Shown piece after piece: positions 54,655 to 61,676 of a stretch of DNA of 64,000 nt (position 1 is its first letter; each line of letters begins with the position of its first letter). The position numbers and the translations under genes are program-made. The DNA lies in contig NZ_JQMQ01000005.1 in NCBI RefSeq assembly GCF_000744815.1, forward strand, positions 1 to 64,000, read 5' to 3'. The stretch is from Phaeacidiphilus oryzae TH49 (lineage in GTDB: Bacteria > Actinomycetota > Actinomycetes > Streptomycetales > Streptomycetaceae). Below the pieces are notes generated by a model. The model searched no databases, was not told where the DNA came from, and saw nothing but the letters and a program-made list of their open reading frames with translations.

Positions 54655-56415
54655 TCAGACCGCGCCCTCCTCGGCCTCCTCTACGGGCCCGGCCGACTCC
54701 GCCTCCTTGGCATCGGCGTAGGAGTCGACCGGCACGGCGTCCATCGGGAAGGGGACCGGGCAGGAGGGGCCGAAGAGGAGGGCCCCGGCCTCCTCCGCGG
54801 AGGCCGCGATCGCCGCCAGCACCCCGGGCACCAGCGGCTCCGCGGCATGCACCACCACCTCGTCGTGCTGGAAGAAGACCAGTCGCGGCGGGTCGCCCCC
54901 GGCCGCGCCGCCGAGTTCGGCGAGTCGGCGGCGCAGGGAGACCAGCAGCACCAGGGCCCATTCCGCGGCGGTGGCCTGGATCACGAAGTTCCGGGTGAAC
55001 CGGCCCCAGGCGCGGGCGGAGCCGCTGACCGGGACCGGATCGCCGTCCTCGCCGAACTCCCGGGCGCCCTCCCCGTCTCCGAGCACCGGGGAGACCCGGC
55101 CGAGGAGCGAGCGCACCGAGCCGCCGGACTCCCCCGTGCGGGCGGCGGCCTCCACCAGCTCCATGGCGCGCGGGAAGCGGTGCCGCAGCACGTTCACCAG
55201 CTGGCCGCCCTCGCCGCCGGTCTGCCCGTACATCGCGGCGAGGAGGGCGATCTTGGCCCGGGCCCGGTCGCCGCCGAAGGCCTCGGCGGCCAGCCCGGCG
55301 TAGAGGTCGCCACGGGCCGCCGCCCGGGCCAGCCCGGGATCGCGGGACATCGCCGCGAGGATCCGCGGCTCCAGCTGACCGGCGTCCGCCACCACCAGCC
55401 GGTGCCCCGGGTCGGCCACCACCGCCCCGCGCAGCACCCGGGGGATCTGCAGCGCCCCGCCGCCGCGCGAGGCCCAGCGGCCGGAGACCACGCCGCCGAC
55501 CACATACTCGGGGCGGAACCGGCCGTCGCGCACCCAGCGGTCCTGCCAGGCCCAGCCGTGGGCGGTGTGGATCCTGGCCAGCTCGCGATAGCGGACCACC
55601 AGCGGCGCGGCCGGATGGTCCAGAGCCCGCAGCTGGTGCATCCGCAGCGAGGGCAGGCTGATCCCCTGCTCGGCGAAGGCCCGCAGCAGCTGGGCCGGCG
55701 AGTCGGGGTTGAGCCGCGGGCTGCGCAGGGCGCGCTGGATCTCCTGGCCGAGGGCGGCCAGCGCGGGCGGCAGCGCCCCACCGGAGGCCGCGGAGGCACG
55801 GGGGCGCGGGCCGAGGAGCTCGACCAGCAGGCGGTCGTGCAGCTCGGTGCGCCAGGGCAGCCCGTCGAAGCCCAGCTCGGCGGCGGCCAGCGCGCCGGCG
55901 GACTCGGCGGCGGCGAGGAGGGTGAGCTCGCGGCCGGCGGCCCGCAGCCGGCGCAACTGGTCGGCGTGCACCTCGACCAGCGCGGCCAGCGGGTCGACGC
56001 CTGGCGGCAGGTTGCTGCGATCGGCGACCACGCTGAACAGGGCGTCCTGGTCCTCGTGCGCGGCGTGGTGGGGTTCCGCGTCGGGCGGCTCGGGGTGGCC
56101 GTGCAGCCGGGCCCAGGCGGCGCCGAGCGACCGGGGGCGGCCCAGCGCGCCCTCGGAGCCCAGCAGCAGCCGTTCGGTCAGGGCGACGTCATGGCAGCGG
56201 CCGAGCCGGGCGCGGCGACCGGTCAGCTGCGGCAGCAGCCTCGGATAGAGCTCGTCGGTGTCGGCCCAGACCCAGCGGGGATGCCCCTCCCGCTCCACCT
56301 CGGCCACGGCGACGGCGAGGTCGGGCACTCGGCGCGGTGCCCCCAGGGCGCGCCCGTCGTCCGCGAGCCACTGGAGCACTCCCCCGGCGCCGTCCAGGTC
56401 CGCCACCAGCGCCAT
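54655..56415 (-). CDS. DNA polymerase I-like protein (family A, possible 3'-5' exonuclease fold)
   Basis: In this 586-residue protein the C-terminal half has family A motifs: motif A (LVVADAGQLEPRILAAMS), motif B (RARAKIALLAAMYGQTGG, with the Arg, Lys and Tyr of the O-helix) and motif C (VFFQHDEVVVH). The N-terminal 200 residues resemble a 3'-5' exonuclease domain that has lost clear Asp-Glu-Asp ligands. No 5' nuclease domain is present. It probably repairs short gaps. The ATG at 56415 has AGGGG upstream; a longer frame begins at 56469. Confidence 0.85.
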   Translation of the reverse strand: MALVADLDGAGGVLQWLADDGRALGAPRRVPDLAVAVAEVEREGHPRWVWADTDELYPRLLPQLTGRRARLGRCHDVALTERLLLGSEGALGRPRSLGAAWARLHGHPEPPDAEPHHAAHEDQDALFSVVADRSNLPPGVDPLAALVEVHADQLRRLRAAGRELTLLAAAESAGALAAAELGFDGLPWRTELHDRLLVELLGPRPRASAASGGALPPALAALGQEIQRALRSPRLNPDSPAQLLRAFAEQGISLPSLRMHQLRALDHPAAPLVVRYRELARIHTAHGWAWQDRWVRDGRFRPEYVVGGVVSGRWASRGGGALQIPRVLRGAVVADPGHRLVVADAGQLEPRILAAMSRDPGLARAAARGDLYAGLAAEAFGGDRARAKIALLAAMYGQTGGEGGQLVNVLRHRFPRAMELVEAAARTGESGGSVRSLLGRVSPVLGDGEGAREFGEDGDPVPVSGSARAWGRFTRNFVIQATAAEWALVLLVSLRRRLAELGGAAGGDPPRLVFFQHDEVVVHAAEPLVPGVLAAIAASAEEAGALLFGPSCPVPFPMDAVPVDSYADAKEAESAGPVEEAEEGAV

Positions 56416-56990
56416 TCGCGCCCCTGCCACCACTCCCACCCGGCCGAAGCTATCACCAGGGTCCGACAACGCCGGGCCGACCGGCGGCGCCGCCCCGTCC
56501 GCGGGGCCCGGAGGGCGGAAGGCGTGAATCCGACTCCCAAGGACTCCGTAATGCGCCCGTGATTGTGAGCTGGATCGCCCGTATTGTTTTTGCCTCTTTT
56601 GCCGGGTTGCGGTAGCCGCGGCCGGGTGGCGGAGTGCGCCAGGTCACTTTCCGGAGCCATTTCCGGGGCCTTGGAGGTGAGGCCGCCCACAGGGCCGCGG
56701 GGAACACGAATCGGGATAGTCGAAGGCGCAGGCCCCAGCAGGCCTGGGGAGCGAAGCCGATCGGGTCTGACTACGGAGCTCTCCGTAGATGGGGCATTTG
56801 GGCCGGTCCGGGTTCTCTGGCTATCAATGACTCATCGCAATCGCCGCGGTGGAAACGAACCGCGGTCCTGTTCCGCAGGGCACCGATCCCACGGTGTGCC
56901 CCGGCGCCCGGAAATCCGATGGCCGCCGACGAAGCGGCCGCCGGCAGAAAAACTTCCGGCGCCCCGACTACCGATTGAGGTTTCGCCCGT
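56416..56990. other. long leader/gap with palindrome before the transglycosylase gene
   Basis: The 575-base gap is less GC-rich than its surroundings and holds no gene I can support. It contains the palindrome CTACGGAG-CT-CTCCGTAG (56771-56788), 200 bases before the start at 56991. I looked for a c-di-AMP riboswitch and did not find its conserved core. A long structured leader is plausible. Confidence 0.5.
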
Positions 56991-59071: not shown

Positions 59072-59653
59072 TCAGGCGGCGAATCCGATGCCGGAGCAGT
59101 ACTCGTAGCCGCCCCAGTCCGAGCCGAGGTCTTCCAGGACGGCGTCCTGCCACTCCGCCGCGAGTTCCGCCTCGTCGCCCTCGGCCCAGGACTCGACGAT
59201 GCCCTCCCAGTGCCGGACGTTGACGCTGCGGTGGGTGGTGACGTTGCCGCGCCGGCGCGCGCCCTGGACCTGGGACTGGTCGTGGGGATGGATCTCCACC
59301 CTGGTGCCGCGGCCCCGGTTGTTCAGCCGGCGGATCAGGTATTCGGCGACGTTGCGGCGGCGGAGGGCGAGGTAGGCGGCGTCCACCCGGTCCCGGTTGG
59401 CGCGGCTGGGGCCGGCTTTGCCCGTCTGCCAGCGCCTGAGGGTGCGTGCGGTGACGGTGACGCCGGCCGCGCGCAGCGCCTGGTCGCCGCCCTTGTGCCG
59501 GGCGAGGTAGTTCAGGCGGGCGGTCAGGCCGCGCCGGGAGGTGACGGGTGAGGCGATGCCGTGGGCGATCTCGTCCAGCCGCCGCCCGGCCAGGCGCCAG
59601 CCGGGCTCGCCGCGCATGCCGTACAGGTGGGGCTGGAGGTTGTTGTACGGCAT
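59072..59653 (-). CDS. Tpg-like terminal protein candidate
   Basis: The 193-residue basic protein has a helix-turn-helix (about 38-95): SRRGLTARLNYLARHKGGDQ, then TARTLRRWQTGKAG. The C-terminal half ends with VLEDLGSDWGGYEYCSGIGF, beta and acidic. Size, HTH place and a strand-like acidic end match the Tpg terminal proteins that cap linear Streptomyces DNA, though residue identity seems low. It starts four bases after the tap-like gene, in the same gene order as tap-tpg. If right, it would be joined covalently to the 5' ends of the replicon; the linking residue cannot be named. Confidence 0.6.
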   Translation of the reverse strand: MPYNNLQPHLYGMRGEPGWRLAGRRLDEIAHGIASPVTSRRGLTARLNYLARHKGGDQALRAAGVTVTARTLRRWQTGKAGPSRANRDRVDAAYLALRRRNVAEYLIRRLNNRGRGTRVEIHPHDQSQVQGARRRGNVTTHRSVNVRHWEGIVESWAEGDEAELAAEWQDAVLEDLGSDWGGYEYCSGIGFAA

Positions 59654-59657
59654 CGGC

Positions 59658-61310
59658 TCAGCCCCTGCCCTCGATCAGGTACTCGTCCTTGACCTTCACC
59701 TCGGCCACCCCGCGGCCCTCGGTGAACACCTGCCGCCAGTCTCCGCCGGTGAGGTGGAGCTCGTCGGTGCCCGTCATCCGTACCACGGTCAGGCCGTGGC
59801 CGTGCGCCTTGTGGGCCTTCACCCACAGGTTGGCGAAGGCCTGGGAGCGGATGATGTGCATCCAGTCCGGGCGGTGGATCTCCCGGTTGTAGGTCGATTC
59901 GCCCATGGTGGAGACGAACTTGGCGTACATCGACTTCACGTACTCCAGCGTCAGGTCGTCCCCGTCGGCGATCGCCCTGTCGCGGGCGTCGCGCAGGGTG
60001 GCGCGGAAGCGCTCCAGGATGTTCTCCGAGGAGACCGCGGTCCAGGACTCCAGGATCTGCGGCGGCTCGCACAGCGCGCCGTAGCGCTCGGTGGCGCAGC
60101 GCTCCAGCAGGCGCAGGGTGGGGTCGGTGATCCACAGCGGGCCGGGCTCCTCCCGCGCCCCCAGCGGGTTGGGCAGGTCCTCGCAGGTCCACTCCGGCGG
60201 GTCGACCAGGTAGATGCCGGAGCGGCGGCGCTTGCGGCCACCGGGGCCGTCCCGGTCGTCCAGCACGTCGCCGGCGCGGTGCTCCAGGGGGCCGATCGGC
60301 AGGTGGGCCTTGAGGGCGGAGAGGTAGGCCGCGTTCATGTCCAGCGCCACCACCTCGTGGGTGCCCTTCCCCAGGGCGCGGTTGCGCCACTTCGGGCGGG
60401 CCTCCCACACCTCGTCGGCGTCCTGCTTGGAGCGCTTGCGCAGCAGGTCCGGCAGCGGCGGGAAGAAGGTGTTGTCATAGCGGGCGCCGGTGCGGGAGGC
60501 CTTGAACAGGGCCATCGCGTCCGGGATGGCCCGCCGGTCCAGCGCGGTGGCGGCCGCCTCGACGTCGCCCTCGGCGGTGGCCAGCTCCTCCGCCACCGCC
60601 TGCGGGATCATCTCCTCCAGCTCCATGCCGGGCTGGACCAGCCGGGCGTCCGCGCGGGCGCCGCCAGGACGGCCGGCGGGGGCGGGCGCCGCGTCGGCGG
60701 GCCGGGGCGGGCGTTCTGATGCCGTGGCGGGCTCGGCGGCGGGCTCGGGCTTGGTCGCGGGCCCCGGGGCGGCGGCAGGCGGCCGGCCTGCGGATGCGGG
60801 CGCCGGTGCCGGTACGGGTACGGGTGCGGACGCGGACGGCGGGTTCGGGGCCGCGGGTCGGCAGAAGTTGCCCAGGTGGCGCGGGCGTCCCGCCGACCGG
60901 TACGGAGTGGGCTGCCCGCAGACCAGGCAGGGCCCCGGCGGACCGGTGACCAGTTCGCCGGCGGCGTCCCGGTCCATCGCCGGCAGTGCGTCCGGGCCCT
61001 CATGCGGATCGGGCCGCGGGCCCGGCTCGGCGTCCGCCGGCGGCGGCGAGGCGGCGGCGAGGCGCTCGGCCAGCCCCTCCAGCAACCGAAGGTACGCGGC
61101 CCGCTTGGCGGTCGGCGGCTCGGTGCGCCCGGCCTCCCAGCCGGCCAGCGTGCTGGGGTGGATCCCCAGGGCGCCCGCGACCTGGGGGCGGCTCAGTCCG
61201 GCGTCCTCGCGCAGTTGCCGGCGCACTGCCGGGGGCGGCAGCTCCACCGGCGGCGCGACGCCGGCCAGCAGCGCGTCCACCGCGGCGAAGGGGTCATCGG
61301 CCATCGCCAT
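59658..61310 (-). CDS. Tap-like telomere-associated protein with family B polymerase-like motifs
   Basis: This is a 550-residue protein. The XRE-type HTH spans about 24-80 (RRQLREDAGLSRPQVAGALG, then HPSTLAGWEAGRTEPP). Next come Cys128, Cys131 and Cys150 (zinc-like), then a Pro/Ala linker (155-215). The C-terminal region shows motif A-like VALDMNAAYLSAL (Asp324), motif B-like YVKSMYAKF (Lys464) and motif C-like TGTDELHL (Asp516). The N-terminus and layout match streptomycete Tap, which is known to bind telomere DNA and recruit Tpg. GAGGAG precedes the ATG; the padR stop overlaps its start by 17 bases. It may prime or copy chromosome ends. Confidence 0.65.
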   Translation of the reverse strand: MAMADDPFAAVDALLAGVAPPVELPPPAVRRQLREDAGLSRPQVAGALGIHPSTLAGWEAGRTEPPTAKRAAYLRLLEGLAERLAAASPPPADAEPGPRPDPHEGPDALPAMDRDAAGELVTGPPGPCLVCGQPTPYRSAGRPRHLGNFCRPAAPNPPSASAPVPVPAPAPASAGRPPAAAPGPATKPEPAAEPATASERPPRPADAAPAPAGRPGGARADARLVQPGMELEEMIPQAVAEELATAEGDVEAAATALDRRAIPDAMALFKASRTGARYDNTFFPPLPDLLRKRSKQDADEVWEARPKWRNRALGKGTHEVVALDMNAAYLSALKAHLPIGPLEHRAGDVLDDRDGPGGRKRRRSGIYLVDPPEWTCEDLPNPLGAREEPGPLWITDPTLRLLERCATERYGALCEPPQILESWTAVSSENILERFRATLRDARDRAIADGDDLTLEYVKSMYAKFVSTMGESTYNREIHRPDWMHIIRSQAFANLWVKAHKAHGHGLTVVRMTGTDELHLTGGDWRQVFTEGRGVAEVKVKDEYLIEGRG

Positions 61311-61656
61311 CGTCCTTGCTCCTCGGCGCCTTCGGCCCGGTCGGCCCGGTCGGGTCGCTGGGGTCGCTGGGGTCGCTGGGCGACCAGTACACGGCGGCGG
61401 CCGCCGCCAGGGCGCGCGGCGCCGCGTCGGCGCCGCGCGGGGTGAGGGTGTAGTAGCTGCGCACGGGGCGGCCCGCGGCCGAGGGGTCGACGTCCTCGCG
61501 CTGACGCGCCAGCCACCCGGCGCCCGCCAGCCGCGCCAGGATCGGGTAGAGCGAGCCCGAGCGCAGGCCCGTCAGCTCCATCAGCTCCATGCCGTACCGG
61601 GGCGTGCCCGGCTGGGCGAGCAGGGCGTTGAGCACCCGGGCCGTGGCCGGCGTCAT
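61294..61656 (-). CDS. PadR-family regulator of the tap-like operon
   Basis: The 120-residue PadR protein has a winged helix (MTPATARVLNALLAQPGTPR, then YGMELMELTGLRSGSLYPIL) and a wing (RPVRSYYTLTPRG). The end is a short tandem-repeat tail (SDPSDPSDPTGPTGP). GGAGG precedes the ATG at 61656. It is the first gene of the operon, and its own promoter carries a PadR-type dyad. Confidence 0.85.
   Translation of the reverse strand: MTPATARVLNALLAQPGTPRYGMELMELTGLRSGSLYPILARLAGAGWLARQREDVDPSAAGRPVRSYYTLTPRGADAAPRALAAAAAVYWSPSDPSDPSDPTGPTGPKAPRSKDDGDGR
61332..61378. repeat. 9-base tandem repeats in the padR 3' end
   Basis: Two TCGGCCCGG units (61332-61349) and three GGGTCGCTG units (61352-61378) encode the Ser-Asp-Pro and Thr-Gly-Pro repeat tail. 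The 9-base period keeps the reading frame. Confidence 0.75.
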
Positions 61657-61676
61657 CCGCACCTCCGCACCCCCTA

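What the first reader, a model, noticed from the sequence alone, without database searches (positions are those of the whole stretch)
59658..60360. Family B polymerase-like palm motifs in the Tap-like protein
In order, VALDMNAAYLSAL resembles motif A (DxxSLYPS), YVKSMYAKF resembles motif B (KxxxNSxYGK), and TGTDELHL resembles motif C (DTDS), keeping the second, metal-binding Asp. An IRSQAFANLWVKAH helix lies between B and C, as in those polymerases. A telomere protein with a polymerase palm, next to a terminal protein, would make a self-contained protein-primed end-replication pair.
Basis: inference. Interest (0 to 1): 0.8.

Follow-up and report, generated by a model that had tools for sequence, protein, structure and literature searches.

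The report
Hidden polymerase in bacterial telomere protein
A protein that Streptomyces-type bacteria appear to use to finish the ends of their linear DNA carries, unrecognised by domain databases, a stripped-down DNA polymerase core most like that of phage phi29, which would explain how these telomere proteins can make DNA although no polymerase motif had been found in them.

Summary
Gene 59658-61310(-) encodes 550 aa: an HTH like that of the telomere protein Tap, a linker, and a ~305-residue domain with motifs A (Asp324), B and C (Asp516) in order. The two Asp are invariant in the aligned relatives. An AlphaFold2 model of this domain (pLDDT 77, pTM 0.77) matches phi29 DNA polymerase best (Z 14.2 over 274 residues; top entry is the polymerase-terminal protein complex), then other family B polymerases (Z 8 or less). 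Independently of the model, a family profile aligns over 185 columns, A to C, with a diverse profile of protein-primed phage polymerases (score 45.7; best of 100 shuffles 23.4). Canonical Tap C-termini match the family too (50.8; best of 200 shuffles 26.4). The gene is followed at once by a 193-aa Tpg-like terminal-protein gene, a pairing kept in most relatives, often near plasmid ends; within one sampled genus such genomes mostly lack canonical Tap. Exonuclease and thumb are missing and TPR2 is shortened. Best reading: a minimal, divergent protein-primed family B polymerase that starts telomere end-patching. Tap and Tac were shown biochemically to polymerise, yet reported to have no polymerase motif (PMC4513846). 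Catalysis by this protein is inferred.

The parts
59658..61310 (-). Tap-like telomere protein gene, 550 aa: N-terminal HTH, linker, C-terminal minimal family B polymerase core
   Evidence: ORF; HTH_31 E 4.7e-9; NF047542 Tap matches aa 8-192 only, 76.8 bits versus cut-off 600
61071..61220 (-). HTH domain, residues 31-80, shared with canonical Tap
   Evidence: Pfam HTH_31/HTH_3; blastp to canonical Tap N-termini, 38-60% identity
59661..60581 (-). Polymerase core, residues 244-550, aligned to phi29 DNA polymerase 169-496
   Evidence: AF2 model meaff08b64d37; VIA Z 14.2 over 274 residues; Foldseek E 2e-4, prob 1.00; profile match to protein-primed PolBs
60312..60353 (-). Motif A, residues 320-333 (VVALDMNAAYLSAL), catalytic Asp324, equivalent to phi29 Asp249
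   Evidence: invariant Asp; aligned to the DxNSxYP motif of phage polymerases
60021..60314 (-). Region equivalent to TPR1 (residues 333-430), putative terminal-protein contact
   Evidence: profile alignment of GPLWITDPTLRLLER...ESWTA to phi29 ADLWLSNVDLELMKE...GLKFK; assignment inferred
59907..60020 (-). Two-helix fingers, residues 431-468, with motif B at 455-465 (LEYVKSMYAKF)
   Evidence: helices 210-228 and 231-247 of the model; SMYAKFVS aligned to SLYGKFAS
59745..59786 (-). Motif C, residues 509-522 (VVRMTGTDELHLTG), catalytic Asp516, equivalent to phi29 Asp458
   Evidence: invariant Asp and Glu; aligned to YCDTDSIHLTG
59072..59653 (-). Putative terminal protein, 193 aa, starts 4 nt after the stop of the polymerase gene
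   Evidence: HTH shared with Tpg (hhalign 38.3 versus best of 100 shuffles 28.6); directly follows the polymerase gene in 39 of 46 examined loci; AF2 pLDDT 85.6

Best explanation
The protein is the telomere-associated polymerase of a non-archetypal Streptomyces-type end-patching system. Its HTH region binds telomere DNA and/or a partner. Its C-terminal domain is a divergent, minimal protein-primed family B polymerase (palm, two-helix fingers, TPR1-like region; no exonuclease, no thumb, reduced TPR2). It pairs with the terminal protein encoded 4 nt downstream, uses a hydroxyl of that protein as primer, and adds the first dNMPs opposite the 3' overhang with two metal ions held by Asp324 and Asp516. 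With no thumb and little TPR2 it should be distributive, make a short oligomer and hand over to a host polymerase. Canonical Tap carries a homologous core. Shown by computation: motifs, fold match, homology, operon, end-proximity, near-exclusion with Tap. Inferred: DNA binding, metal catalysis, priming residue, short product.
For: Fold: phi29 polymerase Z 14.2 over 274 residues, five phi29 entries at 13.2-14.2, next PolBs 8.0 or less; Foldseek's top seven are phi29 polymerase; viral-library top hits are DNA polymerases. Sequence profiles: PolB 45.7 versus shuffle maximum 23.4; merged family 54.9 to the polymerisation half, 8.9 to the exonuclease half. Canonical Tap: 50.8 versus shuffle maximum 26.4, motif A aligned and A, B, C-like segments conserved. 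Helicase-fused relatives: 146. Operon with a Tpg-like gene. On linear plasmids over 100 kb, 24 of 42 lie in the outer 10% at either end, 8.4 expected. In one genus, canonical Tap in 1 of 10 genomes with this core and 14 of 17 without, p 8e-4. Sole such pair found in its genome. Tap and Tac polymerise on their terminal proteins in vitro with no polymerase motif recognised (PMC4513846).
Against: No biochemical data for this protein. Motif B lacks the usual Lys at the phi29 383 position and Asn387; a Lys sits four residues on (459), but it is absent in the most divergent relatives. First Asp of motif C is Gly. No thumb. Canonical Tap does not match PolB profiles directly (18.4), only through this family. 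The terminal protein's fold beyond the HTH has no clear PDB match and its priming residue is unknown. No telomere could be read: the window's first bases are coding, not a visible replicon end.
Confidence: 0.83

Rival explanations
1. The domain has a family B polymerase fold but is catalytically dead and serves only as a terminal-protein docking scaffold; a host polymerase does the priming.
For: Motif B is degenerate and thumb and exonuclease are absent; host polymerases were proposed earlier for end patching (PMC4513846).
Against: Both catalytic Asp are invariant across relatives down to ~45% identity; Tap, whose core is homologous, was reported to polymerise without added polymerase (PMC4513846).
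Confidence: 0.1
2. It is a general gap-filling or repair polymerase of linear plasmids, not a protein-primed one.
For: The core is often found on plasmids together with other replication genes.
Against: Near-constant pairing with a Tpg-like gene, end-proximity, near-exclusion with canonical Tap.
Confidence: 0.04
3. It is an HTH transcription regulator, as databases label it, and the polymerase resemblance is chance.
For: Annotated as an HTH regulator in most records.
Against: Fold match to phi29 polymerase and profile significance; the core also occurs without the HTH, fused to a DnaB-type helicase.
Confidence: 0.02

Closest known systems
phi29 DNA polymerase (protein-primed family B)
   Same: Palm with motifs A, B, C in order, both catalytic Asp, two-helix fingers, TPR1-like segment, neighbouring terminal-protein gene
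   Different: No exonuclease (phi29 1-189), alignment stops at phi29 496 so no thumb, TPR2 region about 15 residues shorter, motif B Lys/Asn changed, first Asp of motif C is Gly, HTH added at the N-terminus
Streptomyces Tap (with Tpg)
   Same: N-terminal HTH; C-terminal core homologous by profile; tap-tpg-like operon; Tap is known to work on telomeres
   Different: NF047542 score 76.8 versus cut-off 600; core only ~20% identical; mostly in genomes without canonical Tap
Helicase-fused relatives on linear plasmids (DnaB_C plus core; L019, L020, L023)
   Same: Same core (hhalign 146 for the L019/L020 group), followed by a ~190-210 aa gene
   Different: N-terminal DnaB-like helicase in place of the HTH
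GtpB-GtpA of Streptomyces griseus and Tac-Tpc of SCP1 (non-archetypal telomere pairs, PMC7205883, PMC8743542)
   Same: Described as non-archetypal pairs of a telomere-associated and a terminal protein
   Different: Their sequences could not be obtained here, so identity with this family is untested

Membership tests
Protein-primed family B DNA polymerase | Family B palm fold | tested here: met
   Z 14.2 to phi29 polymerase over 274 residues; Foldseek prob 1.00
Protein-primed family B DNA polymerase | Two catalytic Asp: motif A and second Asp of motif C | tested here: met
   Asp324 and Asp516 invariant and aligned to the Asp249 and Asp458 positions
Protein-primed family B DNA polymerase | Motif C written YxDTDS | tested here: not met
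   GTDE here. Annotated phage polymerases also vary: ETDA (Badulia), ATDG (RickRoss), NTDG (BD811P3), so this alone does not exclude it
Protein-primed family B DNA polymerase | Motif B KxxxNSxYGK | tested here: inconclusive
   SMYAKF aligns with SLYGKF; the Lys383 position is Leu, the Asn387 position is Lys
Protein-primed family B DNA polymerase | TPR1 insertion | tested here: inconclusive
   Similar length and profile alignment between motifs A and B; no coordinates to superpose
Protein-primed family B DNA polymerase | TPR2 insertion | tested here: inconclusive
   Segment between fingers and the pre-C helix is about 15 residues shorter than in phi29, with low pLDDT
Protein-primed family B DNA polymerase | N-terminal exonuclease and C-terminal thumb | tested here: not met
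   Core starts at phi29 ~169 and ends at ~496; no match to the exonuclease half. So it is filed as a divergent variant, not an ordinary member
Protein-primed family B DNA polymerase | Uses a terminal protein as primer | not testable with these tools
   Only the neighbouring Tpg-like gene is seen
Canonical Tap (NF047542) | Curated score over 600 bits | tested here: not met
   76.8 bits, N-terminal part only
Canonical Tap (NF047542) | HTH plus homologous C-terminal core | tested here: met
   blastp of HTH; hhalign 50.8, none of 200 shuffles reach it
GtpB (S. griseus) | Sequence similarity to GtpB | not tested
   S. griseus GtpB was not identified in the collections at hand

The most novel reading that the evidence does not exclude
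The telomere-associated proteins sampled from Streptomyces-type linear replicons, canonical Tap included, share one exonuclease-less, thumb-less protein-primed family B polymerase core that has been swapped onto different N-terminal modules (HTH, DnaB-type helicase, an unknown ~700-aa region). [quoted passage not shown]
Probability: 0.75. Interest if true: 0.88.

Novelty: new variant of a known kind. Interest (0 to 1): 0.8.

Why it matters
[quoted passage not shown] This work names a likely active site in the non-archetypal family and, by homology, in canonical Tap (GIDVN and SDC motifs), so single-residue mutants can settle it. It would link bacterial chromosome end replication to the phi29/adenovirus type of protein priming instead of independent invention, suggest why the product is short, and give a search profile for telomere systems of replicons with no known Tap/Tpg, a gap stated in PMC8743542.

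Tried and rejected
Direct Pfam, NCBIfam, PHROG and PDB sequence searches with the core gave no polymerase. Comparison with phi29-like polymerases alone was not significant, which is why a diverse polymerase set was built. Tap C-terminus versus PolB profile directly: not significant, so Tap's membership rests on the chain through this family. The viral-contig scans found no relative of the core or of Tap. Canonical Tap could not be folded: no permitted source held it. The terminal-protein model matched only HTH proteins, weakly; no claim is made on the rest. The SCP1 record, S. griseus GtpB and the 2017 Tap paper (gkx189) were not held. An idea that a published plasmid said to lack Tap/Tpg carries this pair was dropped: the record is pRLB1-9.2, not pRLB1-9.1. 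Upstream PadR gene: no similar gene found in the related loci. Window start checked for a telomere: coding sequence. The first genome-search runs failed.

Full report
What is there. The finding lies in the C-terminal part of ORF 59658..61310 on the minus strand, 550 aa. Pfam sees only an HTH at residues 31-80; NCBIfam's Tap model NF047542 matches residues 8-192 with 76.8 bits against a cut-off of 600. The next gene, 59072..59653, starts 4 nt after the stop and encodes 193 aa with no database family. The window is the start of a large contig (G000:C5) of a Streptomycetaceae-family genome of 7.8 Mb.

The motifs are real and conserved. The core is encoded by 145 plasmid records, nearly all Streptomyces, with Kitasatospora, Embleya and Streptantibioticus, and by 339 stretches of the genome collection, of which the best 80 were fetched. 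In an alignment of 47 sequences, and in a wider set of 14 down to 45% identity, Asp324, Asn326, Asp516, Glu517 and His519 are invariant.

The fold is a family B polymerase. AlphaFold2 on residues 222-550 with 46 relatives gave pLDDT 77.3 and pTM 0.77. Foldseek's first seven PDB matches are phi29 DNA polymerase (E 2e-4, probability 1.00). VIA-align places five phi29 entries at Z 13.2-14.2, model 23-329 on phi29 169-496, with 2ex3, the polymerase bound to its terminal protein, at the top; other PolBs follow at 8.0 or less. The top viral matches are DNA polymerases. Secondary structure follows the family order: motif A strand, then about 100 residues, two helices in a row with motif B in the second, a long helix, then two short strands flanking motif C.

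Sequence agrees without the model. A profile of the family against 22 protein-primed phage polymerases gives 45.7 over 185 columns; 100 column shuffles reach at most 23.4. The match is to the polymerisation half (45.9) and not to the exonuclease half (9.9); the two terminal-protein families, used as unrelated controls, score 12.6 and 17.2. Aligned pairs include DMNAAY with DVNSLY, SMYAKFVS with SLYGKFAS, and GTDELHLTG with DTDSIHLTG. Loss of the first motif C Asp is also seen in annotated phage polymerases of actinobacteria (ETDA, ATDG, NTDG).

Canonical Tap shares the core. The family profile scores 50.8 against 24 canonical Taps, with 200 shuffles at most 26.4; the match is to Tap's C-terminal half only (49.7 versus 14.9). 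In 13 Taps the Asp of G[ILV]D[VIL]N, a KxTxKGxxGKL segment and SDC are conserved or nearly so; they resemble motifs A, B and C. A set of plasmid proteins with a DnaB-type helicase domain in front of the core is closer still (146). A merged profile of all three scores 54.9 against the polymerase half. Tap alone does not reach significance against PolB, so this step is by transitivity.

Context says telomere. In 39 of 46 loci a 189-193 aa gene follows at once. It shares the HTH of Tpg (38.3 versus shuffle maximum 28.6). On linear plasmids longer than 100 kb the core lies in the outer 10% at either end in 24 of 42 listed records, 8.4 expected; these records were spread down the ranking but are not all independent, and a few are helicase-fused relatives. 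In one genus sampled in two searches, canonical Tap passes its cut-off in 1 of 10 genomes with this core and 14 of 17 without (Fisher p 8e-4, not corrected for phylogeny). In the window's genome no canonical Tap core was found and the pair is unique.

Mechanism. The literature reports that Tap and Tac add deoxynucleotides to Tpg and Tpc without added polymerase, Tap stopping at 13 nt, with DNA polymerase I extending, and that there is no polymerase motif in them (PMC4513846). In phi29, TPR1 binds the terminal protein, TPR2 gives processivity and strand displacement, and Asp249 and Asp458 are the catalytic carboxylates (PMC4974454, PMC6921018). A core with a TPR1-like segment but without thumb and exonuclease and with a reduced TPR2 fits a priming enzyme with a short product. 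The gene pair here is therefore read as an end-patching primer and polymerase. The steps from fold to catalysis are inference.

Novelty. No paper found in the library assigns a PolB core to Tap or its relatives, but the 2017 paper naming Tap a primase was not held, so prior recognition cannot be excluded.

Noticed in passing
window 54655-56469 (-): A family A DNA polymerase gene (PF00476, E 1.1e-16) lies about 3 kb from the telomere pair; DNA polymerase I is reported to extend the Tap-made oligomer. Probably a common actinobacterial gene, link untested.
   Followed up: partly
window 61294-61659 (-): A PadR-like regulator gene overlaps the start of the Tap-like gene, as if in one operon; no similar gene found in the related loci.
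   Followed up: partly
L021 10852-14040; L022 9978-13199: In 15-17 kb linear plasmids the core ends a 1062-1073 aa protein that matches no Pfam family, followed by the terminal-protein gene.
   Followed up: no
L019 3186-5720; L023 3210-5981: The core is fused to a DnaB-type helicase domain, in L019 with a Phd-type antitoxin domain in front: helicase and priming polymerase in one chain.
   Followed up: partly
L206 3012-4454 (S. albidoflavus plasmid, 1.3 kb from the end): The core protein is annotated 'acyltransferase', evidently a misannotation; several plasmid records share it.
   Followed up: no
L176, L177 (Microbacterium and Streptomyces tectiviruses): Phage polymerases with ETDA/ATDG in place of DTDS in motif C, a possible link between phage and telomere polymerases.
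   Followed up: no
window 60861-60935 (-), residues ~126-150: A CxxC...H...C stretch between HTH and core could be a small zinc-binding motif.
   Followed up: no
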